This document shows positions 7,652-33,409 of a DNA stretch of 64,000 bases, piece by piece. The stretch's first letter is position 1; every line of letters starts with the position of its first letter. The DNA lies in the NCBI GenBank assembly GCA_001839685.1, contig MLAK01000134.1, positions 47,758 through 111,757 on the forward strand, in the 5' to 3' direction. The notes under the pieces were generated by a model. The model was not told the origin of the DNA and searched no databases. It worked only from the letters and a program-made list of their open reading frames with translations. The translations under genes and the position numbers were made by a program. The stretch is from Tritrichomonas foetus. Lineage: Eukaryota; Parabasalia; Tritrichomonadida; Tritrichomonadidae.

Positions 7652-10552
7652 TTAAATAACTAAATGGAGTTCTTGAAGACGTTGAATAGCATCTTGACAA
7701 CCACCTTGGGCTGAAGCTCGATAATATAAAATAGCATCTTCACGATTTTCATTAATTCCAAGACCTCTTTCTAAAAAACGACCAACTGCATATTGTGATT
7801 GGGGCATATTTTGTTGTGCAGATGCTGAATAATACCTTAAAGCTTCTTGGAGTGATTTTGTTGTTCCTGCACCTAATTCTAAACATGCACCAAATGAATA
7901 TTGTGCGAATTGATTTCCAAGATCAGCAGACAGTTTATAATATTTTGCTGCTTCATTTATATTTTGAACAACACCAACTCCTTGTTGGTATGCTGCACCA
8001 AGTTCAAACATCGCTTGATTATTATTTAAACTTGCTGCTTTTTTGCAATAATGAATTGCCAACTGGAGATTTTTTTGTGTTCCACGCCCATCTTTCAGCA
8101 TTTGATAGAGCATTAAAGCAGATTCAACATGATTTCTATCAGCTGCATTCCTTAAATAGTATAATGAGTATTCTCCACTTTGTGGAACATGATTTCCATA
8201 AAAATACATTGTTCCTAATTCATGCATTGCCAAAATATCCCCATTATCAGCAGCCGACTTTATTAATTCTAATCCTTGCTTTTCATCAGTTCCATTATTT
8301 AACAATTTTCTCCCAAGTAGAAATTGCGATTCAGCAGATTGATTATCATTTTTTGTGGTATTTGAAGTAAAATTACTATTTAAATTATTATTAAAATTAC
8401 TATTATAATTACTTGAAAAATTACTATTGTAATTACTTGAAAAATTACTATTGTAATTACTATTGAAATTACTATTGTAATTACTAGTATAGCTTGGAGC
8501 AGCAATATTTAAATTAGGTCTTGGATTTGTGCTATATGCAGATGCAGAATTCATGTTCGCATTAGTGTGAAAAGCATTTAATGACAATGGTGCTGACGTT
8601 AGTAAAGGGTTTGTGTTGCTTGAAGTCATTGTCAATTCTGCATATTTTTGAACAGCTTCTGGGAGTTTCAAATCTGCTGCTTGTTTTATATAATTTAAGG
8701 CAATATCATGTTGGTTTTTTTCTAAATATTTTTGACCCATTAAAAATAAAGCTGCAGATACATTTGCTTGAGCTGCCATTGAAAGATATCTTGCGGCTTT
8801 TAAGTGTTTAACTTCAGTTCCAATTCCAGATTCTAAACATACAGCAAATCTATATAATGCCTCAGGATATCTCTTCTTTGCTGCAATTCGAAAATATTTG
8901 GCTGCAGCCTCTTCATTTTTAGGAAGCATTTGGCCATTTAAGTACTGCTCTCCAATTAAATAAGCTGCTTCAGGAATATTATGTTCATGAGCTGCTTTAT
9001 AAATCATATCAAATCCTTTTTCTGGTTTTCCTTGGAAAATGAATTTTCCATATTCAAGTAGACCTTCTCCAATATTTGCTTTTGCAGAATTATGTAATAA
9101 TTTTATAGCTTCATTTATTTTCACATTATTGCTTTCTTTTTTCCCTTCATTAAACATTTTTATTCCAACTTTATATTGCGCTTGTGGATTTCCTGAATCA
9201 GAAGCTTGTTTCAAATATTCTTCCTTTTCTTTCCCAGATACAATTTCACTCAACAAATAATATGAATCATTAACACCTGCTTTAGCTGCTCTTTGAAGAT
9301 ATCCTAATGCTAATTTGCTATCACATTGACAGCCAATACCAAGTCTTAAAACCCTTCCATGATGATATAATCCATTAGGGGCATCTAAACGAGAAGCTTT
9401 TTCATAGTATCTAAATGCTTCAGTTTTGTTTTGTCGAACACCTTTTCCTTGTTCTAGTAAATTACCAATTTTCCAAAACCCATCTCTATTTCCAATATTA
9501 GCTGCCATTTGATAATATTTTGCTGCATTTTCTAAATCTTCTTCTTCCAAATATAGATCACCACATCTTACCATTGCAGGACCTTCTCCTTTATCGGCTT
9601 TCTTTTGATATTCTTTTGCACGTTTATCAATGATTGAATATAAAATGTTTTTTGGGACGACAATTTTTTTGTATTTTTCAATGATTCGATTTGAGGCTTT
9701 AGGTAAATCCATTCCATCTTCCATTAGGAATTTTGTGATTTCTTCCATTGATGGCCTTAATTTTGGGACTTTTTGAAAACACAATAGAATAAATGACATT
9801 AATTTTTCTGGAATTTTACCATTATGAATTGGTGGACCTCTCTCAAGAACAGAGTTTCTAATGTTACGATTAAAAGGGTTTTCATTTGCTACTAATTTAT
9901 AAACAAAAACACCAAAGGAATAAACATCACTTTTTGAAGTTGGCTGTTGAGCTTCAAATTGCAATTCTGGTGCTTGAAATCTTAGATGAAAACTATGATT
10001 CAAATTGTGATTTGGAATGTTTCCAAACAATCCAAAATCAGAAAGTTGAATTTTTCCTTTATTGTTGACAAAAACTGATGAAAATGATAAGTTTCCATGT
10101 ACAATATTATTCTTATGTAATTCATTTAAAGCACATGCTAAACCAATAATTATTTTGAGTTGTGCTGTTTGGTCTAAATCGGGAGATCTGTTCAGTTGAA
10201 CCATATTTGTTGGATACCTAAAGAAAATTTGATTTGAAGTTGAGTGTGAATATTTTAATAAACAAGGATGATTTAAATGAGAAAAACTCTCTCCTAAAAT
10301 TGATGCACTATGAATGATTTCGTTTAAAGTGTATACTAAAAAGTCTTTTTTTGCTTGTTTGTCTCTAATCCATTGCTTCTTGGCTGTTGGCAGTGCGCGA
10401 AAAGTAGTCACTGTTTCCATCATAAAATCTTTATTCGAATTCATCACAATATTGAATGACTTTGAGAATTTTGATATTATTTCTTTCAAAATTCTACTTT
10501 CAATGAAAACATCAGAAAAAAATAGTGATCTTATTATCTCGTATTGATACAT
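7652..10552 (-). CDS. pseudokinase with Sel1-like repeats
   Basis: A 966-residue protein with a kinase-like domain at about residues 45-275. The rest is two blocks of Sel1-like repeats (about 318-640 and 745-960), separated by a Ser/Asn-rich linker (about 680-735) made of NYNSNF-type units. The first ATG is at 10550-10552; two preceding codons are TTG and GTG. The kinase fold keeps DFG (172-174), APE (194-196) and SDVYSFGV. However, the HRD motif is HGN (152-154), so the catalytic Asp is lost, and the segment where the VAIK lysine should be (LVYTLNE) has no Lys. It is most likely catalytically dead, acting as a scaffold whose alpha-solenoid Sel1 arms bind partners. Kinase-Sel1 fusions are a large family in trichomonads. 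The substrate or pathway is unknown. Confidence 0.85.
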   Translation of the reverse strand: MYQYEIIRSLFFSDVFIESRILKEIISKFSKSFNIVMNSNKDFMMETVTTFRALPTAKKQWIRDKQAKKDFLVYTLNEIIHSASILGESFSHLNHPCLLKYSHSTSNQIFFRYPTNMVQLNRSPDLDQTAQLKIIIGLACALNELHKNNIVHGNLSFSSVFVNNKGKIQLSDFGLFGNIPNHNLNHSFHLRFQAPELQFEAQQPTSKSDVYSFGVFVYKLVANENPFNRNIRNSVLERGPPIHNGKIPEKLMSFILLCFQKVPKLRPSMEEITKFLMEDGMDLPKASNRIIEKYKKIVVPKNILYSIIDKRAKEYQKKADKGEGPAMVRCGDLYLEEEDLENAAKYYQMAANIGNRDGFWKIGNLLEQGKGVRQNKTEAFRYYEKASRLDAPNGLYHHGRVLRLGIGCQCDSKLALGYLQRAAKAGVNDSYYLLSEIVSGKEKEEYLKQASDSGNPQAQYKVGIKMFNEGKKESNNVKINEAIKLLHNSAKANIGEGLLEYGKFIFQGKPEKGFDMIYKAAHEHNIPEAAYLIGEQYLNGQMLPKNEEAAAKYFRIAAKKRYPEALYRFAVCLESGIGTEVKHLKAARYLSMAAQANVSAALFLMGQKYLEKNQHDIALNYIKQAADLKLPEAVQKYAELTMTSSNTNPLLTSAPLSLNAFHTNANMNSASAYSTNPRPNLNIAAPSYTSNYNSNFNSNYNSNFSSNYNSNFSSNYNSNFNNNLNSNFTSNTTKNDNQSAESQFLLGRKLLNNGTDEKQGLELIKSAADNGDILAMHELGTMYFYGNHVPQSGEYSLYYLRNAADRNHVESALMLYQMLKDGRGTQKNLQLAIHYCKKAASLNNNQAMFELGAAYQQGVGVVQNINEAAKYYKLSADLGNQFAQYSFGACLELGAGTTKSLQEALRYYSASAQQNMPQSQYAVGRFLERGLGINENREDAILYYRASAQGGCQDAIQRLQELHLVI

Positions 10553-12967: not shown

Positions 12968-15190
12968 ATGACAAATACAGACGGAAATTTCACCATTTTA
13001 TCGGCTGGAAATCCTACTAAAGGCCAACTGGGACGCGGTGGAAACAACAGTGTTCCATCTCCTGTGGCACTTCCAACTTCCCAAATTTCTTGTTTATCAA
13101 ATGGGAATATACATAGTGTTGTACTCTGTAAAGATGGGTCAGTCCTTTGGTGGGGGCAGAAAAATGGAAGTTTCAGCTTTGAAGAAGAAGATGCCGACAT
13201 TCCAACCAAAATTAAAGGACTTCCATTTATAATTGATGTTAAATGTGGCGATTATTTCACTCTCTTTCTTACAAAAGAAAAAAAAGTTCTTATTTCATCA
13301 TACTATGAAAAAAATCATTTCACTGGGATAAAAATTCCCGAACCAGCTGTTGCCCTGTTTGGTTATGAATATCCTTGGATCGTTGGTGAGAGTGGAGCAA
13401 TTTATTTTTATGAATATAATAATCAAAATTTCCACAATGTTGTCAAATTTGGCCCATATTCATTTGGTGTTCCAAAACAAATTGTTTCTACTTGGCATTC
13501 TGTTGTTTTAATAACTTCATCAGGTGAAGCATTAGGAATGTCCATGTCAAATCTTATTCCCAAAAATGATCATCCGATTTTCCAGATTGTTCCGAAAAAT
13601 GTGAAAGAATTTGTACCGATTAAAAGTCTTTGGGGTGTGAAAATCAGAAAGGTTGTTGGAAACGAACTTCATTATCTTGCCATTTCAGAAGACAATCAAG
13701 TCTTCAAGTGGGGAATAACAGGGATGTTTAGTAATTTCTACAAGAGTTATTTTACAGGTTTTAATATTCATAACATTTGTAGAGATGCTAAATTTATTGA
13801 CATTGCTACTGCAAAAAACCATTCTCTATGTGTAGACTCTTCAGGTCATGTTTGGGGCTTCGGAAATGGTGAATATGGACAAACACTGCTGAAAGATGAC
13901 ACTAGTTTTGTATCCAATTTAATTGAAAAAGCAGTTGCTGTTCATTGCGGATCCGATTTTTCACTTGTTGAAGTTGGAGAGTATGCCCTTCCAGAGGCTG
14001 GGTCACTGAATTTAGAATTAAATTCAAATCATAAGCCTCATAATTTCCAAGAAAACAATGAATTGGTTTCAAGAAATCCTATGAAATTTAATGATAATTT
14101 GAGAATTCATGATTCGTCTCAATTAAATAAAATTCGAGATTTAGAAGAAAAGCTTTTAAAATCAAAACAAAAAATATCATCACTTAAAGAAACAATTCGA
14201 TCCTTTTCTACAATTCAAAAGCAGTATGAAGAACTCAAAACAGAAAATGAATATAAAAATGTGGAGATTAGCGAACTTCATCAGCAAATTCAGAAACTTA
14301 CAAACGAAATACAAAGTCAAATTTCTACATCATCACCAAAAATTATGTCACAGAAAGAAATAGAAAGTTTCAATATTATTAAAACTATTGGAAGTGGATC
14401 ATCAGCCAATGTTGTCAAAGTTTCACAAGAACAATTTTATGCATTAAAAATTTTGAAACTGGAGAATATTGATGAAGAAGATAGTGAATCCGATAGTTAT
14501 CACAGTAATCAAAGTTATGATGGTGAAGAAGAAACAAATAAACAAAAGTTCAAAACAGAATTCGAAAAGCTTCAATATTTTATGAAAGAATATGAAATAA
14601 TATGTCAAATATCACATAAAAATATTATTAAAACGTATGGAATTTGTTATGGAAATGAAAAGAATCCACCATCAATTTTATTAGAATATTGTCCATTTAA
14701 TTTAAAGAAAAGAGTTAAAAAATTGAATGATGAAAATAGATACCAAATTATTTCTGAAATCATTGAAGGGATGTCATATATTCATGAAAGAGGATTAATT
14801 CATCGAGATTTAAAGCCAGAAAACATTTTACTTGATTCTGAAAATCATGTTAAAATTTGTGATTTTAGAATCTCAACATTATCAAGTGATACATCACATA
14901 CAGGTGGTATTGGGACTCTTGCATATATGTCGCCAGAACAATTAAATGGTGATAAACATTATACTAACAAAGTTGATGTTTATGCCTTTGGCATTATTCT
15001 TTATTTCATTTTGACCAATGGTTCAATTCCCAATATTTCTGTTGGTGATATTGTTAAAGGTAAACAAATTCATCTTCCAACACGGATTCCAGATTTTTAT
15101 CGACGCATGATTAAAAAATGTTTATCTTTTGCTCCAAAAGACCGACCAGATTTTTCTGAGCTTCACATATTGCTTTCATCATCGAAATAA
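12968..15190 (+). CDS. RCC1-repeat protein with C-terminal protein kinase domain (DFR variant)
   Basis: A 740-residue protein. Residues 1-345 are degenerate RCC1-type propeller repeats (LSAGNPTKGQLGRGG, VWGFGNGEYGQ). A coiled coil at about 385-450 follows (LEEKLLKSKQKISSLKETI). A Ser/Thr or TKL-like kinase domain occupies about 462-740. It has IGSGSSANVVKV as glycine-rich loop, YALKILK as VAIK, HRDLKPEN with H612-R613-D614, and YMSPEQ in place of APE. An acidic insertion lies after the VAIK motif. The DFG motif is DFR (632-634), a single-base change from GGA to AGA relative to its tandem paralogue, and may weaken or abolish Mg2+ positioning. Start 12968 is the first ATG. The propeller probably recruits a partner or substrate, and the pathway is unknown. 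Confidence 0.85.
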   Translation: MTNTDGNFTILSAGNPTKGQLGRGGNNSVPSPVALPTSQISCLSNGNIHSVVLCKDGSVLWWGQKNGSFSFEEEDADIPTKIKGLPFIIDVKCGDYFTLFLTKEKKVLISSYYEKNHFTGIKIPEPAVALFGYEYPWIVGESGAIYFYEYNNQNFHNVVKFGPYSFGVPKQIVSTWHSVVLITSSGEALGMSMSNLIPKNDHPIFQIVPKNVKEFVPIKSLWGVKIRKVVGNELHYLAISEDNQVFKWGITGMFSNFYKSYFTGFNIHNICRDAKFIDIATAKNHSLCVDSSGHVWGFGNGEYGQTLLKDDTSFVSNLIEKAVAVHCGSDFSLVEVGEYALPEAGSLNLELNSNHKPHNFQENNELVSRNPMKFNDNLRIHDSSQLNKIRDLEEKLLKSKQKISSLKETIRSFSTIQKQYEELKTENEYKNVEISELHQQIQKLTNEIQSQISTSSPKIMSQKEIESFNIIKTIGSGSSANVVKVSQEQFYALKILKLENIDEEDSESDSYHSNQSYDGEEETNKQKFKTEFEKLQYFMKEYEIICQISHKNIIKTYGICYGNEKNPPSILLEYCPFNLKKRVKKLNDENRYQIISEIIEGMSYIHERGLIHRDLKPENILLDSENHVKICDFRISTLSSDTSHTGGIGTLAYMSPEQLNGDKHYTNKVDVYAFGIILYFILTNGSIPNISVGDIVKGKQIHLPTRIPDFYRRMIKKCLSFAPKDRPDFSELHILLSSSK

Positions 15191-15811: not shown

Positions 15812-18184
15812 ATGAGGAAAAGAGTGACACATAGAAAAATGAGCATTGTGTCGGCAGGATCAACCCGTACTGGGCAACTTGGGAGATTTGGTGACTGTTT
15901 AACCCCTTCTCCAATTAAAAATTTTGATCCTGAGAGTCTAGTCTGTATATCAGTTGGGTGGGATCATTGTGCTGCACTTTGCAAAGATGGAACGGTTTTT
16001 GGATGGGGAATAATGAAACGTATATCTTCTTATGAGGGTTTGGAAATACCAATGAAGCTAGTGGGCTTACCAAACATCATTGATTTAAAATGTGGTAATG
16101 AATTCACACTTTTTATGAATGATGAAAGGAAAGTTTTTATTACATCAGATCTTTATTATGAAAAGACAACGAACATTTCACTTTTAGAAGTTAAAATTGG
16201 TGAACGTGCAGTTGGGCTATTTGGCTTCGACGATCCATGGATTTTAGGAGAGAGTGGTTCAATTTTTTGGTGCAACTATTCTGATCAAACAATCAAATAT
16301 ATCAAAAAATTTGGCCCTTATCACTTTGGTTTACCAAAACAAATTTTATCAACATTAAACATATGCTTTTTGATTACATCGTCAGGTGAAGCTTATGGAA
16401 TGAATATGAAACAATTGAAACAGGACAGAAAATATTATAATCAGAATAATAATTATAATTATCATCTTGTAGATTGTGAAGATGATTTCAAACCAATTGA
16501 AGCTCTTCAAGGTGTGAAAATTCGGAAAGTTGCGGGTTGTTTCTCTGATTTCTTACTTCTTACTGAAGATAATCGATTGTTTTCCTCATCAACATTTCTT
16601 TTCGATAAATTTGGTAAAGGAATTGAATCGCCTGACGATGAATTTAACAAGTTTATATGTCCTTCAGTTTATAAAAACAAAACAATTATTGATATTGATA
16701 TGCAATATTCTCATAAAATCCTTATCGATTCAACTGGTCATGTCTGGGGTTTTGGGTATGGAGAATTTGGAGAAACTATGCTTGGAAAGAAAAGTTTTTT
16801 CTCAAAAAGATCCCCGAAATCGAAAAAGATCGAGGGGGCTATTGCAGCTCACTGTGGTCAAGATGTTACAATTGTAGAAGTTGGAGATGAACCACTTAAA
16901 ATCGCAGGAACTATTGAACTTCAGAAAAGACTGAAAGAATATTGTGTGTTACATTATCAGGGACAATCCAACCAAACAACAAAGCCAACCCAACCTAAAA
17001 TATCCCATGAAAAATTAACAAATAATGAAGTAAAAAGAACTGTTCAAGAAGAAAATCTTAATTCTAAAATTGAGCCTTTAAACAAATCTAGAACCCAAAA
17101 GATTAAAAAACCAAAAATATCGAAGAATTCAATCAATCAAGAAAAAATGAATAAAGTTGAAAAAACTCAAGAAAATCAGAATCAAAATCAAAAAATTTCT
17201 ATTAATGACAAAAAATACAAAACTAATGAAGTAAAAAGAACTGTTCAAGAAGAAAATCCTAATTCTAAAATTGAGCATTTAAACAAATCTAGAACACAAA
17301 AGATTAAAAAACCAAAAATATTGAAAAATTCAATCAATCAAGAAAAGATTATTGAAACAGAAAAAACTCAAGACAATCAACATCAAACCGTTTCTGTTGA
17401 TGAATTAACGACGAAAATTATGTCACAAGATGAAATTGATAATTTTCAAAGGATTAAAACAATTGGTAATGGTGGTTCTTCTGATGTTTATCAAGTTTCT
17501 AATGGAAATTGGTATGCTTTAAAAGTTCTCAAGATTCAAGAGCAAAGTGAACATGATTTTGATAAAGTTCGGAGATTTATGAATGAATATGAAATTATAT
17601 GTAATATTCAGCATCCAAATATCATAAAAACATATGGAATTTGTTATGGTGATCATGATCATCCTCCATCAATTTTACTTGAGTATTGTCCACATAATTT
17701 GAAGAATTGTATTCAAACTTTGACAAATAATGAAATAAAACAGATTATCATAGAAATTGCCGAAGCAATGTCTTACATTCATCATTGTGGATTAATTCAT
17801 CGAGATTTGAAACCAGAAAACATTTTACTTGATTCTGAAAAACATGTAAAAATTTGTGATTTTGGAATTTCAACTCTTGCTGAAGAACACACACATACAA
17901 TTCATATTGGTACGTTTGCATATATGTCGCCCGAACAGCATTGTGAGGATGAACATTATACCAATAAAGTTGATGTTTATGCTTTTGGTTTAATATTATT
18001 GTTTGTTTTAACGCATGGATCACCTCCAAAAATTTCCCTTATTGATGTAATTAAGGGAAAAAAAATTCATCTTCCTGCTTCAATTAATCAATTCTATCAA
18101 AAGATGATTCTTTCGTGTATTTCATTAGATCCAGATGATCGTCCTAATTTTTCAGAACTTGCAGAAACACTTAATTCTCATTAA
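15812..18184 (+). CDS. RCC1-repeat protein with C-terminal protein kinase domain (canonical paralogue)
   Basis: A 790-residue tandem paralogue of the gene at 12968-15190, with the same order. RCC1-like repeats cover about 12-370 (SAGSTRTGQLGRFG, VWGFGYGEFGE). A long Lys/Asn/Glu-rich linker covers about 390-530, and a kinase domain about 545-790. The kinase motifs are complete: IGNGGSSDVYQV, YALKVLK, HRDLKPEN (H663-R664-D665), DFG (683-685), YMSPEQ and DVYAFGLIL, so it should be active. The linker contains a 67-residue internal duplication that its neighbour lacks. The first ATG is at 15812; upstream in-frame codons lack an ATG. A second ATG at 15839 (MSIVSAG) aligns better with the paralogue's start. 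Substrates are unknown. Confidence 0.87.
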   Translation: MRKRVTHRKMSIVSAGSTRTGQLGRFGDCLTPSPIKNFDPESLVCISVGWDHCAALCKDGTVFGWGIMKRISSYEGLEIPMKLVGLPNIIDLKCGNEFTLFMNDERKVFITSDLYYEKTTNISLLEVKIGERAVGLFGFDDPWILGESGSIFWCNYSDQTIKYIKKFGPYHFGLPKQILSTLNICFLITSSGEAYGMNMKQLKQDRKYYNQNNNYNYHLVDCEDDFKPIEALQGVKIRKVAGCFSDFLLLTEDNRLFSSSTFLFDKFGKGIESPDDEFNKFICPSVYKNKTIIDIDMQYSHKILIDSTGHVWGFGYGEFGETMLGKKSFFSKRSPKSKKIEGAIAAHCGQDVTIVEVGDEPLKIAGTIELQKRLKEYCVLHYQGQSNQTTKPTQPKISHEKLTNNEVKRTVQEENLNSKIEPLNKSRTQKIKKPKISKNSINQEKMNKVEKTQENQNQNQKISINDKKYKTNEVKRTVQEENPNSKIEHLNKSRTQKIKKPKILKNSINQEKIIETEKTQDNQHQTVSVDELTTKIMSQDEIDNFQRIKTIGNGGSSDVYQVSNGNWYALKVLKIQEQSEHDFDKVRRFMNEYEIICNIQHPNIIKTYGICYGDHDHPPSILLEYCPHNLKNCIQTLTNNEIKQIIIEIAEAMSYIHHCGLIHRDLKPENILLDSEKHVKICDFGISTLAEEHTHTIHIGTFAYMSPEQHCEDEHYTNKVDVYAFGLILLFVLTHGSPPKISLIDVIKGKKIHLPASINQFYQKMILSCISLDPDDRPNFSELAETLNSH
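17022..17350 (+). repeat. internal tandem duplication in the kinase linker
   Basis: Two in-frame copies of about 125-130 bp begin near 17022 and 17223, with a period of 201 bp (67 codons). They encode the NEVKRTVQEEN...SKIE...LNKSRTQKIKKPKI...KNSINQEK segment with only a few substitutions. It is a recent coding duplication absent from the upstream paralogue. Confidence 0.85.
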
Positions 18185-28655: not shown

Positions 28656-29393
28656 TTATTTTTTACAACAACTCAACCTGACTATTGCAATTACAAAGAA
28701 GCTTATTATCATGAGTCCAGCAATCACAGAACCAACAATAATCATATTGGTAAACATAGATTTTGAAATGATTATAACTTCCTGTACTGTTTCATTATTT
28801 TGAAGATATAAATATGACCCCCCTCCTCTACAAGCCATTTTAATCTTTCTGTCTTTGATATAGCTTGGTTCTAAATTAAGGAATATGTTGGTTAAAAGAT
28901 CATTTCTGTTTTTCATACCAAATAGGCATCCTTTGCATAAAAAATTCAAAATATCATCATGTATTTTTAAATCATGTTTGAACGTAATGTTATTTATATT
29001 TATTAAGCTCTTCTTTCCTTCGATCTCTGGTAGTAAATAACTATCATATCTGCTATAACCATCTTTTCCAATAAAAGTAGAATCGATTGTAATATTGGAT
29101 ATACGATAATATGTGCCTATCAGCGTATATTTATGAGAAATTAACCTTGGAAGAAAAACCAAGTTATTAATAAGAATTTCTTCTCTTAAATTAATTTCAT
29201 ATGGTTCACTTCCATAGATATTAAAATAATCTAACGTAAATTTATTAATTTGTAAACTTTGTGAAGGGGAAATGTAAGCACCACCAACAACAACAACATT
29301 TTCAATTCTAATTACACCGATTATTTCCAAACTAGAATCAATAATTTTTAAATCTTGGATATTGATAGGAGTACTTGAATTAAGAATTGCCAT
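28656..29393 (-). CDS. C-terminal fragment of a surface protein split by a transposon
   Basis: A 245-codon frame from the first ATG after the transposon. The frame is open back to the insertion site (29451), so the original gene ran through without a break. It ends in a membrane anchor (MFTNMIIVGSVIAGLMIISFFVIAIVRL, about residues 210-240) and a very short Cys/Lys tail (SCCKK). The ectodomain part has N-glycosylation sequons. It is continuous with the N-terminal fragment at 31454-33409; without the element the two would encode about 913 residues. The fragment has no promoter of its own that I can see and is probably not expressed alone. Confidence 0.75.
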   Translation of the reverse strand: MAILNSSTPINIQDLKIIDSSLEIIGVIRIENVVVVGGAYISPSQSLQINKFTLDYFNIYGSEPYEINLREEILINNLVFLPRLISHKYTLIGTYYRISNITIDSTFIGKDGYSRYDSYLLPEIEGKKSLININNITFKHDLKIHDDILNFLCKGCLFGMKNRNDLLTNIFLNLEPSYIKDRKIKMACRGGGSYLYLQNNETVQEVIIISKSMFTNMIIVGSVIAGLMIISFFVIAIVRLSCCKK

Positions 29394-29453
29394 TTTTTTA
29401 AAGCGTCTATTATCGAATGTAATAGGAACAGGAATTATTCCATTATCAATATA

Positions 29454-29495
29454 CAGTCATTAATAAAAGTATGTCCCACTAATAAAAGTGTGTCC
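29454..29495 (+). repeat. left terminal inverted repeat of the transposon
   Basis: 42 bp beginning CAGTCATTAATAAAAG and exactly complementary to the right end. It contains the tandem units TAATAAAAGTATGTCCCAC and TAATAAAAGTGTGTCC, the second cut off by the TIR boundary. They differ at one position. Confidence 0.93.
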
Positions 29496-29940
29496 CACCT
29501 CTAAATAAATAGACTTTTTTTACTTTTTAATTTCCTTATTTCTCCAATATATAGAGACTTTTTTATGATCGAATTTGTGCATACATGATTATTACCATCT
29601 CTACTATAAGTTGAAATGNTAATNAATCGAAAATAAAAATTCTTATTCAGATATCTAAAATCTGCAATATTTTATAAAATTCCTTGGATTTTCAAATTGC
29701 TACTNTCAAACATCATAATTGTATAATTACTCAATAATTCTTATTTAATTTGCTCAATATATAGAATCCAATCAGATGTTCCTGATTATTTGTGTCATTC
29801 ATTTCACTTCATTATTTTTGTTTCATTTATATGACAAGAACAAATGAAAGAAACATAAACTAATATATCTCAAACACTTNTACATAGCANCTATTTCACA
29901 TCAAAAAGAACAAAGATAGAATTAATAAATGAATTACTTT

Positions 29941-31369
29941 TTATTTACTTATTTTTGGGATTTTTGGTTTGGGATGATATTTTATCCATTTTGACTTCAG
30001 TGGCTTCTTTTTTTTTCTGATTTCTAGCCTCTTTTTCAGTTCTTCTTCAAAATNNTGTTTGTTGATGAATCCAAATTGGGTTGTTCGAGTAAGGTTGGTT
30101 GAATTTTTTGAATTTTCTGATTTAGTCAATATTTCTTGAATAGTACACGATTTGGTAAATTCATTTTCATCAATTATTGCAGTATATGGTTCATTGCTAG
30201 TATTAGGCTTTATTCCAGCCTTTGAAAAAGCCTTTCTATTGGTATTTCCGGTGGTAGCCTGTTCGAAAGCTTGTATTAACTTGTTTATTTGGTCAGCTTG
30301 TGAATTTTTTATAAATTCAGTTCTGATTGTTTTTTTTCGTCTCTTCACAATCCCAAAAGTAACTAAATCCAACATTTGAAACAAACCTGTTGAGTTACTT
30401 GGGAAAGTAATTAGTTTAATCAAATTTTCACCAAGTAATTTTTTGATAGAATCTGTTGTATGTGATGAACAATTATCTGAAAACATAACAGCAGGACTAT
30501 CAAGATTTCCAATGCTTGTTCTTGACTCTTGAACATGTTTTAATACACTTAATTTCAACCATTCTATAATAAGATCTTCATTAACAAAGCCAGTTGATGA
30601 GCTTCGAAGCATTACATCCTCATCTTTTCTTAATCCAGATGATATCACATCTGATTGAATTCTAGTTCGATGATCGATGATCATGGGCATAANGTTTGAT
30701 TGAATAATGGATTGATTGTCCTTTCATATCAGCAGGGACAAGCACATCTTTTGATTTTGATTCGTGTCGTTCTGAAGAACCCATTTCGTCAAAATTATAT
30801 ATTAGGTCCATATAAATTCCAGCAACTTCTGCTTTCAGTATATTAATATATTCATGAATATTATCCGGACTTATTGATAAACGTGCACCATCTTGTGGTA
30901 TTGCAGTTGCTGGAATCACTTCACTTTGATACCTTTTTAAGAAATTTGTCATCCAACCATATGACAAAGCAACTTGAAAGTTTTCAAGAATAAAATCAAG
31001 CACTTCACATTGAGACAATGGCGTTGATGCAATTGCATTAGATTTGATAAATTCGAGGACTTGTTTTTCTTGAATGTCAGTTAGTGATTTTGGTCTTCCA
31101 TCATTTTTGTGGCTTTTTCTTGCTTGCTCGAGACTTCGTGTCAAAATTCTCCTGGATATCCCGAAGAGTAACTGCACATTTTTTTTGGTTGTAATTATAT
31201 CGTCAAATTCTGAAAAGATCTCATAAACTTTGGCAATTTGTGAATATCGATATTGACAGCTTGAAAGCTCTGAACTTCGTTTTAATGAAATATAAAGGCG
31301 CTGTCCAAATAATGTTTGTGCACGGTTAATCAATTCTTCAAACAGAANCNGAGTGNCTGCTTTCTTCAT
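29941..31369 (-). CDS. transposase with DDE_1-type (pogo/Tigger) catalytic domain
   Basis: Reads as two overlapping frames (31369 to 30662 and 30690 to 29941). The only obstacle is an ambiguous base at 30693; ignoring it gives one frame of about 475 residues. The ATG is at 31367-31369. The N-terminal 150 residues are basic and helical, with a GRPKSLTD linker after a helix-turn-helix-like segment, as in CENP-B/pogo DNA-binding domains. The catalytic acids fit the DDE_1 pattern: Asp194 in YNFDEMG, Asp298 in FSDNCSSH, and Asp334 in QMLDLVTFGIVKR, 35 residues after the second. The C-terminus is Lys-rich, suiting nuclear import. The enzyme cuts and re-inserts the element at TA sites. If the indel is real, this copy is inactive. 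Confidence 0.85.
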
Positions 31370-31421
31370 TGAGAAAATCTGGAAATAAAAATGAAAAAAT
31401 CTAAACGTACGAAAAAAGCCA

Positions 31422-31463
31422 GGACACACTTTTATTAGTGGGACATACTTTTATTAATGACTG
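31422..31463 (-). repeat. right terminal inverted repeat of the transposon
   Basis: Exact reverse complement of 29454-29495 over 42 bp. Identity stops immediately inside (CACC on the left, TGGC on the right), which defines the repeat length. It is followed by the TA target duplicate at 31464-31465. Confidence 0.93.
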
Positions 31464-33409
31464 TATAGTGCCTGAATGGATAGGTTTTGAATTTGTTGAC
31501 ATTCGAAATATTGCATAAAGCCATTAAAAATTAGAGTAATATTAGAATTTTCAGAATCAAATTTTGGTAAATTTTGATATATCTTAGTAATATTATCATC
31601 AAAAGTAGAAATGTTCTTAAAATGAATAGGATTATTATTAGGGTTGATTGTAAAATTAATATGATCAGTATCATGTGGAACATTAAATTCTTTACCTTCG
31701 GTAATGTACCTAAAAGAAGAACTTGATCCGGTAATTTCTATATCATTTTTGAGTCTAATGACATAACTGTCTGCTAAGACATATTTTTCAAGTTCATCTA
31801 GCATTGAAAAAGATATTTCAAAGACTTTTGCATGCGTACTCTCTCCATACACGCGAGCTTCTACAATGAGAGTAATTTTATTACAACTACAATTTGATTG
31901 AATATTCAAAATACAATTATTGATTTCAATTTCTTTTAAATATTCTTGATCATAGCTTATATTCAGACTATAGTTTCTCAAAATTCCATAATCATGAACA
32001 TCTTTAATAGTGAATATTCGATAATTCTTTGGAATGGTAAATATTATGTTTCCAGAGATGTTAGCATTCGTTAATCTAATATTTGCAACTGACAATTCGT
32101 CAACATCAGGAGTGATTGTGATATTATTCAGTGTTAACAAATTGAGATTGTAGTCGGTCTCAAAATGAACATTAATATGATGGTTACTTCCCCTAATCTC
32201 ACATTTTTCTTGATCCTTTATCACGAATTTGAAATTATCTCCTAAATCTACAGTTGGAGACAAAGAGAGGAAAGAAACATCATCCATTTCCCCTTCTATT
32301 ATTGTTACATTATCATAAGATATTATTGACTGACCATTATATTTAACGTTAATAGACCGTAATTCTTTTGATGTAACATTTCCGAAAAAATATGTGTCAT
32401 TACCAGATATATTTACATCATCACCAAGATAGCAACTACCCATTAAACTATCAAACAAAGTGCATGAACTTATATTATAAAAACTGTTACGATATGTTGC
32501 TATTGTAATTTGTTCATCCATATCTTGGCCAACAATATAACTAGTTTGTTTATTTTTATTATAAACTAGGACTTTTTTGTTAAACGTTGAATTAAAGGAG
32601 CTTAAATTATGACAATTGATTATATAATCTTGATATCCATCAATAGTGGAATTAATTAATGTTAAATTACCAACTGTCTCACAATCATTAAAATACACAC
32701 TAATATTGGAAAAAGTAGCGCTTCTATTAACGGGTGGCATATTAGAGATGTGTAATTTGAAGGCATCATCAGTCATTGATTCAACATATAATGAAGAAAG
32801 ATAAAAATTTTTCTTTGGAAAGAAAATTAGAGTCTCATTTGCCTCATGAAAGTTTGTGTATATTTTCATATGGGCACCCTTATCTCTGGATGTACTGAAT
32901 TTATAATTAATATAATCAAAATTGTTTTCATCACAACTATCCCATATATCTGTCAAACAAATTCTTATTGTTTGGATAGCTTTTTGTGATTTATTTTTCT
33001 CCTGGTAATTGGAGTGATTCGCTTGAAATGGAAAATGATAGGAACTATCAAATAATGTGACCGAGTTGACAATGACATTAGCATCTTGATATTTTTCGAG
33101 TATTGGTGTTCCATGAATTACAAGATTGTTTAAAGCACAATCGTTTTCAAAGTAGATGTGAGTGGACCCTTTGATTATTATTTTCGATGATATTATCTCG
33201 GATGAGCATTTGAAATGTAGACTGTTAGTATGGCTATTCACTTCAATTGTTTTCACATTTGGATCATTTTCGAGTAAAATATGTTCTTCAGTGGGACACT
33301 TAATAATATAGTCAATTTCAGGGTCGTTGGCTTTGATTCTTGTTGGAATGTCACTAGAGGAGCACTGATGAAAGACTCTCTCTAAAATAAGAAAAGACAC
33401 GAAAATCAT
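31454..33409 (-). CDS. N-terminal fragment of a large surface protein split by a transposon
   Basis: The frame starts at ATG 33409 with a hydrophobic leader (MIFVSFLILERVFHQ) and reads 648 native codons before entering the transposon, where it ends after the codons for Y-S-H in the terminal repeat. The sequence is Asn/Ile/Ser/Thr-rich with very many N-x-S/T sequons and repeating strand-like stretches (for example LNNITITPDVDELSVANIRLTNANISG), suggesting a beta-helical, glycosylated ectodomain. The membrane anchor is in the downstream fragment at 28656-29393. I cannot name the family; an adhesion or coat function is plausible for such trichomonad surface proteins. As it stands it would be secreted or degraded, lacking its anchor. 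Confidence 0.75.
   Translation of the reverse strand: MIFVSFLILERVFHQCSSSDIPTRIKANDPEIDYIIKCPTEEHILLENDPNVKTIEVNSHTNSLHFKCSSEIISSKIIIKGSTHIYFENDCALNNLVIHGTPILEKYQDANVIVNSVTLFDSSYHFPFQANHSNYQEKNKSQKAIQTIRICLTDIWDSCDENNFDYINYKFSTSRDKGAHMKIYTNFHEANETLIFFPKKNFYLSSLYVESMTDDAFKLHISNMPPVNRSATFSNISVYFNDCETVGNLTLINSTIDGYQDYIINCHNLSSFNSTFNKKVLVYNKNKQTSYIVGQDMDEQITIATYRNSFYNISSCTLFDSLMGSCYLGDDVNISGNDTYFFGNVTSKELRSINVKYNGQSIISYDNVTIIEGEMDDVSFLSLSPTVDLGDNFKFVIKDQEKCEIRGSNHHINVHFETDYNLNLLTLNNITITPDVDELSVANIRLTNANISGNIIFTIPKNYRIFTIKDVHDYGILRNYSLNISYDQEYLKEIEINNCILNIQSNCSCNKITLIVEARVYGESTHAKVFEISFSMLDELEKYVLADSYVIRLKNDIEITGSSSSFRYITEGKEFNVPHDTDHINFTINPNNNPIHFKNISTFDDNITKIYQNLPKFDSENSNITLIFNGFMQYFECQQIQNLSIQALYSH

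What the first reader, a model, noticed from the sequence alone, without database searches (positions are those of the whole stretch)
28656..33409. Frame-neutral, apparently recent transposon insertion in a large surface-protein gene
Removing 29454-31463 together with one TA copy joins the two minus-strand frames as ...Q-A-L-Y-I-D-N-G-I-I-P-V-P..., giving one open frame of about 913 residues from leader peptide to membrane anchor. Neither half has accumulated stops, and the terminal repeats are identical. The insertion is therefore young, perhaps polymorphic between strains, and has turned an anchored surface protein into a truncated, secreted form. That could be a natural on/off switch for surface display if excision is precise.
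Basis: seen in the sequence. Interest (0 to 1): 0.85.

Follow-up and report, generated by a model that had tools for sequence, protein, structure and literature searches.

The report
Young transposon inside parasite membrane-protein gene
In the genome of the cattle and cat parasite Tritrichomonas foetus, a recently spread "cut-and-paste" transposon sits inside a gene for a membrane-anchored, probably surface-exposed protein and probably leaves only a shortened, unanchored form; this is a clear case of a known kind of event, and nothing shows that it is an on/off switch.

Summary
A DNA transposon (29454-31463; 42-bp perfect terminal repeats; TA duplication) splits a minus-strand gene; frame arithmetic gives 913 aa for the uninterrupted gene. 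A paralogue without the insert (G000:C358, 1954 aa) aligns with both halves, with 10 residues between the two matches on either protein. The genome is Tritrichomonas foetus strain K. The element is a DD35D pogo-type transposon; the 17 full copies found differ by 6 substitutions in all, so the burst looks recent. The assembly was gap-filled, which may inflate identity: all 11 Ns of the window and a 53-bp shortfall lie inside this copy, so its "broken" transposase is doubtful.

"Frame-neutral" is automatic for any insertion with a target duplication. Hits in genes (3 of 17 insertions, 4 of the 17 not judgeable) are no more frequent than the TATATA target predicts (12 of 56 sites in ORFs). Polymorphism between isolates is likely by analogy with Tvmar1 but was not testable here. 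A switch by precise excision has no support. A modest extra: the terminal repeats carry TAATAAA twice and supply the stop plus a trichomonad-type poly(A) signal.

The parts
31454..33409 (-). 5' part of the split membrane-protein gene (651-aa ORF; host sequence down to 31464, last residues and stop from the terminal repeat)
   Evidence: matches the G000:C358 paralogue, 37% identity over residues 491-641, E 6e-29
33362..33409 (-). hydrophobic leader (about residues 1-16), also at the paralogue's N-terminus; weak
   Evidence: 11-residue hydropathy maximum 1.98 (paralogue 2.09), but no 19-residue window reaches 1.6; 6 of the first 19 residues the same
28656..29453 (-). 3' part of the same gene: frame open from the element border, 265 codons; ORF with Met 28656-29393 (245 aa)
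   Evidence: 29% identity to the paralogue's C-terminus, E 5e-28
28677..28745 (-). predicted membrane span near the C-terminus (about residues 217-239 of the 245-aa ORF)
   Evidence: 19-residue hydropathy up to 2.75; aligned with the same feature of the paralogue
29454..31463 (-). pogo-type DNA transposon copy (transposase on the minus strand, same direction as the host gene); 2010 bp with 11 N, commonest form 2063 bp
29454..29495 (+). left terminal inverted repeat, 42 bp, holding two 19-bp direct repeats (29458-29476, 29477-29495)
31422..31463 (-). right terminal inverted repeat, 42 bp (19-bp repeats 31422-31440, 31441-31459); read in the host gene's direction it gives stop TAA followed by TAAA
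29452..29453 (.). target-site duplication TA, left copy
   Evidence: TA on both sides in 17 of 17 full copies
31464..31465 (.). target-site duplication TA, right copy
30662..31369 (-). transposase, N-terminal part (235-aa ORF from ATG)
   Evidence: residues 1-226 of the 493-aa transposase, 98%
29941..30690 (-). transposase, C-terminal part (249 aa) with DDE_1 domain
   Evidence: (PF03184, E 1.5e-7), 26: residues 243-493, 98%
30693..30693 (.). N beside a 53-54-bp shortfall relative to the other copies, probably a gap-filling scar

Best explanation
A recently amplified, TATATA-targeting pogo-type (DD35D) DNA transposon of Tritrichomonas foetus strain K inserted, with the usual TA duplication, into one of two related genes for large type I membrane proteins. 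A transcript from the gene's own promoter runs into the terminal repeat, which at once supplies a stop codon (TAA) and, right after it, TAAA, the trichomonad poly(A) signal. The expected product is the leader plus ectodomain, about 648 host residues, without the anchor; the 3' part with the membrane span has lost leader and promoter and is probably dead. Shown: anatomy, family traits, frame, paralogue. Inferred: that the gene is transcribed, processing at TAAA, secretion, surface location, and presence/absence variation between isolates. There is no evidence for a switch.
For: Terminal repeats and TA duplication; 17 full copies found, 7 of 17 identical to the majority and 6 substitutions in all; 493-aa transposase open in 12 of 17 copies, DDE_1 E 4e-10, 35 residues between the last two catalytic Asp candidates; TA on both sides in 17 of 17 and TATATA in 15 of 17; paralogue alignment with 10 residues between the two matches on either protein and abutting matches in the reverse search; two other copies sit in open frames in the same way, L049 (ubiquitin-like domains) and L036 (WD40); TAAA overlaps the stop codon in 9 of 17 chosen window ORFs against 1.6% of random non-genic positions; host identity.
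Against: The assembly was built from short reads and gap-filled (PMC5399258), so near-identity of copies may be inflated, and the interior of this copy (11 N, 53 bp short) is probably a composite; six of the 17 copies also differ by indels. No RNA or protein data were available. The leader is weak (charged residues 10-11, no 19-residue hydropathy peak). The paralogue is only 29-37% identical and covers residues 491-641 of the 5' part in the local alignment, with 8 residues of gaps shortly after the junction. No second isolate could be searched. The kinesin search listed no T. foetus name in its best 120.
Confidence: 0.85

Rival explanations
1. Reversible switch: precise excision in part of the population restores the anchored protein, so insertion and excision toggle surface display.
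For: Transposase open in 12 of 17 copies and nearly identical copies suggest recent activity; the frame would be kept if exactly one TA remains; Passer footprints range from 0 to 4 bp, so 0-bp events exist (PMC9976928, passages).
Against: No empty allele found in the assembly (besides the paralogue, one locus per half); footprints that are not multiples of three break the frame; re-insertion at one TATATA site would have to be frequent; in-gene hits are not enriched (3 of 17 insertions, or 3 of 13 with readable flanks; 12 of 56 TATATA sites in ORFs).
Confidence: 0.04
2. Assembly artefact: two unrelated contigs joined through a repeated element.
For: Gap-filled assembly; all 11 Ns of the window are inside the element and one adjoins a 53-bp shortfall; other copies lie at contig ends.
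Against: Both flanks match one paralogue in order, with equal spacing across the junction and one reading frame; TA on both sides as in the 16 other full copies.
Confidence: 0.03
3. The two ORFs are independent, expressed genes and the insertion is harmless.
For: Both ORFs begin with ATG and have no internal stop.
Against: The 3' ORF starts inside a stretch that is continuous in the paralogue, has no leader, and its frame stays open upstream to the element border.
Confidence: 0.04

Closest known systems
pogo superfamily, Fot-like (or Passer-like) elements as defined in PMC7386202 (passages seen)
   [quoted passage not shown] Fot-like elements are reported there from one Excavata species
   [quoted passage not shown] only E 0.054 for a piece); 6-bp TATATA target; placement in a tree not tested, so Fot-like against Passer is open
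Tvmar1 of Trichomonas vaginalis (Tc1/mariner; PMC4021607, passages and section 6 seen)
   Same: Recently amplified cut-and-paste element in a trichomonad, with insertions close to genes
   Different: Different superfamily; Tvmar1 has population data (19 loci, 94 isolates), this element has none here
T. foetus TRFO_37559 and its copies (sister subfamily, 63% identity)
   Same: Same genome, intact 495-aa transposase, long terminal repeats beginning CAGTCA with TGTCCCACT-like units
   Different: Different subfamily; its terminal repeat (L058, compared by eye) does not carry the doubled TAATAAA

Membership tests
pogo superfamily (Fot-like) | DDE_1 (PF03184) transposase, 300-977 aa | tested here: met
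   E 4.1e-10, 40 bits against cut-off 22; 493 aa
pogo superfamily (Fot-like) | DD35D spacing | tested here: met
   35 residues between the second and third Asp candidates; the Asp residues were assigned by motif from recall of the family, not by a structure
pogo superfamily (Fot-like) | TA (or TAA/TAAA) target duplication | tested here: met
   TA in 17 of 17; a 4-bp TATA duplication does not fit L041 and L042
pogo superfamily (Fot-like) | terminal repeats of 40-60 bp, element 1.2-5.2 kb | tested here: met
   42 bp in the window copy; 2063 bp in 11 of 17
pogo superfamily (Fot-like) | N-terminal HTH_psq and/or HTH_Tnp_Tc5 | tested here: inconclusive
   none up to E 0.1 in the full protein; HTH_Tnp_Tc5 E 0.054 in the N-terminal piece
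pogo superfamily (Fot-like) | groups with Fot-like transposases in a tree | not tested
   no reference set was fetched; one fungal relative at 22%
Tc1/mariner proper | DD34E/DD34D catalytic triad (recalled) | tested here: not met
   spacing 35; the only Pfam match is DDE_1
Phase-variable surface switch | both alleles present in one population, with precise reversal | not testable with these tools
   one assembly only; no empty allele found in it

The most novel reading that the evidence does not exclude
The terminal repeats are built as portable gene terminators: each 19-bp sub-repeat carries TAATAAA (stop plus trichomonad poly(A) signal), and two of them 19 bp apart close two of the three frames within 29 bp, from either side. 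Insertion would then convert host genes into clean, stable, truncated messages (here an anchored protein into a secreted one), and occasional 0-bp excision would reverse it.
Probability: 0.06. Interest if true: 0.7.

Novelty: new member of a known kind. Interest (0 to 1): 0.3.

Why it matters
It gives a concrete, checkable site where a recent transposon may change a probable surface protein of a veterinary parasite between isolates, and it describes a young pogo-type family in T. foetus with intact transposases and a well-defined target. It is also a caution: in the strain K assembly the inside of repeated elements appears gap-filled, so 'broken' or 'identical' copies should not be taken at face value.

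Tried and rejected
Targeting of genes: rejected. Three of 17 insertions lie in open spans of 300 codons or more; for 4 of the 17 (L039, L043, L047: one flank is N; L045: contig end) this could not be judged, so 3 of 13. Of 56 TATATA sites in the window (overlapping occurrences counted, element left out) 12 lie in ORFs, while the ORF mask covers 69% of the window, counting 28656-33409 whole. A first null with ATAT sites (738 sites, 62% in open spans of 200 codons or more) is too loose, because the target is TATATA in 15 of 17.

Horizontal transfer: the 99.8% match of a second subfamily to a T. foetus protein first looked like transfer between species; rejected, since that protein is encoded letter for letter on contig C793, whose length equals that reported for it, so the host itself is T. 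foetus. Against this, the kinesin search listed neither a T. foetus name nor the query itself among its best 120; I take this as a gap of that database.

A 4-bp TATA duplication: rejected (L041, L042; frame arithmetic). Pfam identity of the membrane protein: none (nothing above cut-off; the paralogue's match to PF01930, E 6e-4 and below cut-off, is taken as chance). Homologues in other organisms: the 5' half found only the window's own protein (that search sees only proteins of 0.55-1.75 times its length that share short words, so the 1954-aa paralogue was out of its reach; the 3' half was not searched there). A search of papers for 'Trichomonas', 'transposon insertion', 'surface protein' and 'polymorphi' gave 2 unrelated papers; one for T. 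foetus and insertion polymorphism listed 8 of 625 papers holding two of three terms, of which I saw the T. vaginalis Tvmar1 paper as the relevant one.

Terminal-repeat terminator as a conserved function: weak, because the sister subfamily's repeat does not keep the doubled TAATAAA; this comparison was made by eye.

The count of TAAA at stops used 17 ORFs that I chose; of the 26 ORFs of 150 aa or more, 5 others (one cut by the window's start, four of 154-197 aa) and the transposase and split-gene ORFs were left out.

Full report
What was checked. The window belongs to a 63.7-Mb assembly of 1064 contigs (G000, contig C101:47758-111757). A transposase protein found by homology, named TRFO_37559 [Tritrichomonas foetus] with a longest contig of 30291 bases, is encoded letter for letter in G000 contig C793, whose length is 30291. 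The genome is therefore taken to be the T. foetus strain K draft (AllPaths-LG with Illumina reads, gap closure with GapFiller using Illumina and 454 reads; 68.5 Mb assembled of an estimated 161 Mb; PMC5399258, part 1 of 2 seen, which holds the main text). The strain follows from recall that TRFO_ tags belong to that project. The kinesin search did not list a T. foetus protein among its best 120, which I take as a gap in that database; it does not outweigh the exact match.

The element. It runs from 29454 to 31463, with 42-bp perfect inverted repeats, each holding two 19-bp direct repeats, and TA on both sides. A DNA search of the own genome with its first 467 bases found 17 copies covering the full query, plus pieces at contig ends (the tool calls such counts lower bounds). 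Of these 17, 11 are 2063 bp long and the rest 2010-2064; 17 of 17 have TA on both sides. Seven of 17 do not differ from the majority; the 17 hold 6 base substitutions in all, and six copies have indels. The 493-aa transposase is open in 12 of 17, has the DDE_1 domain (E 4e-10) and 35 residues between its last two Asp candidates. A sister subfamily at 63% identity has 8 full-length frames without stops and with the same or nearly the same score; three of these that were compared are 99.8-100% identical. More distant relatives at 21-30% are also present.

The copy in the window. All 11 Ns of the window lie inside it. Several of these positions are where other copies vary or also show N (alignment columns 167, 602-603, 1949, 1951, 1957), and one N adjoins a shortfall of 53-54 bp; two other copies (L044, L046) show N close to missing bases too. 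This is what gap filling with reads from several copies would give. The split of the transposase into two ORFs here is therefore doubtful, and near-identity among copies may be inflated.

The split gene. The 5' part (31454-33409) and the 3' part (open from 28656 to the element border 29453) are in one frame if 2012 bases are discounted, giving 913 aa. Neither half has a Pfam match above cut-off, and a protein search with the 5' half found only itself (limited to proteins of similar length). In the own genome each half matches one other place, an uninterrupted 1985-codon frame in contig C358, 1954 aa from its first Met. Aligned separately, residues 491-641 of the 5' half match paralogue positions 1553-1705, and the 3' part from its fourth residue matches 1716-1983; 10 residues lie between on the paralogue and 7 + 3 = 10 in the window, although 8 residues of gaps follow within the next 30. 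In the reverse search the two matches abut. This makes a chimeric junction unlikely and independently favours a 2-bp duplication. Both proteins start with a hydrophobic leader, weak in the window's protein, and end with a strong membrane span. The reverse search found only these two family members in the assembly.

Is it special that a gene was hit? The target is TATATA in 15 of 17 insertions. Three of 17 insertions lie in long open frames: this one (931 codons), L049 (369 codons, ubiquitin-like domains) and L036 (401 codons or more, WD40). Four of the 17 could not be judged because a flank is N or ends, so 3 of 13, or 23%. In the window, 12 of 56 TATATA sites, or 21%, lie in ORFs. There is no sign of targeting. 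Restoring the frame by removing the element plus one TA is a property of every such insertion.

What the insertion does. Read from either side, the terminal repeat gives a stop after 10, 29, or 51-63 nt, depending on phase. In this gene the stop is TAA followed at once by TAAA. In this window TAAA overlaps the stop codon in 9 of 17 chosen ORFs against 1.6% of random non-genic positions, in line with the UAAA poly(A) signal reported for T. vaginalis (as cited in PMC6413133, passages). It is therefore likely, but not shown, that transcripts end inside the repeat and that a leader-bearing, anchorless protein is made.

Polymorphism and switching. In T. vaginalis, 14 of 19 tested Tvmar1 insertions were present in fewer than 25% of isolates, in a panel of 94 (PMC4021607, section 6); by analogy this site may well be polymorphic. 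No other isolate could be searched here. The pogo-type element Passer leaves footprints of 0-4 bp (PMC9976928, passages), so frame-restoring excision can happen but need not be the rule. No empty allele was found in the assembly, which covers less than half of the estimated genome and would not show a minority allele.

Verdict. A real, probably young insertion of a pogo-type family member into a gene for a probable surface protein of T. foetus; ordinary in kind. The switch is a conjecture.

Noticed in passing
17 chosen window ORFs, stop codons: TAAA overlaps the stop codon in 9 of 17 ORFs (background 1.6%), so T. foetus seems to share the stop-overlapping poly(A) signal of T. vaginalis.
   Followed up: partly
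L058 (G000:C101:5300-9000), L064 (C793:19900-24200): A sister pogo-type subfamily (63% identity) with 8 full-length open transposase frames, one on the same contig as the window; C793 holds two neighbouring frames.
   Followed up: partly
L049 (G000:C493:28530-32630) and L036 (G000:C956:4780-8880): The same element sits in a gene with ubiquitin-like domains and in a WD40-repeat gene, each in one frame across the site.
   Followed up: partly
L054:3534-4661: An actin gene beside the paralogue reads with several X residues (Ns in the DNA), again suggesting that Ns mark multi-copy sequence in this assembly.
   Followed up: no
window 7652-10552, 12968-15190, 15812-18184: Protein kinases joined to Sel1 repeats or to RCC1 repeats, the latter two side by side.
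   Followed up: no
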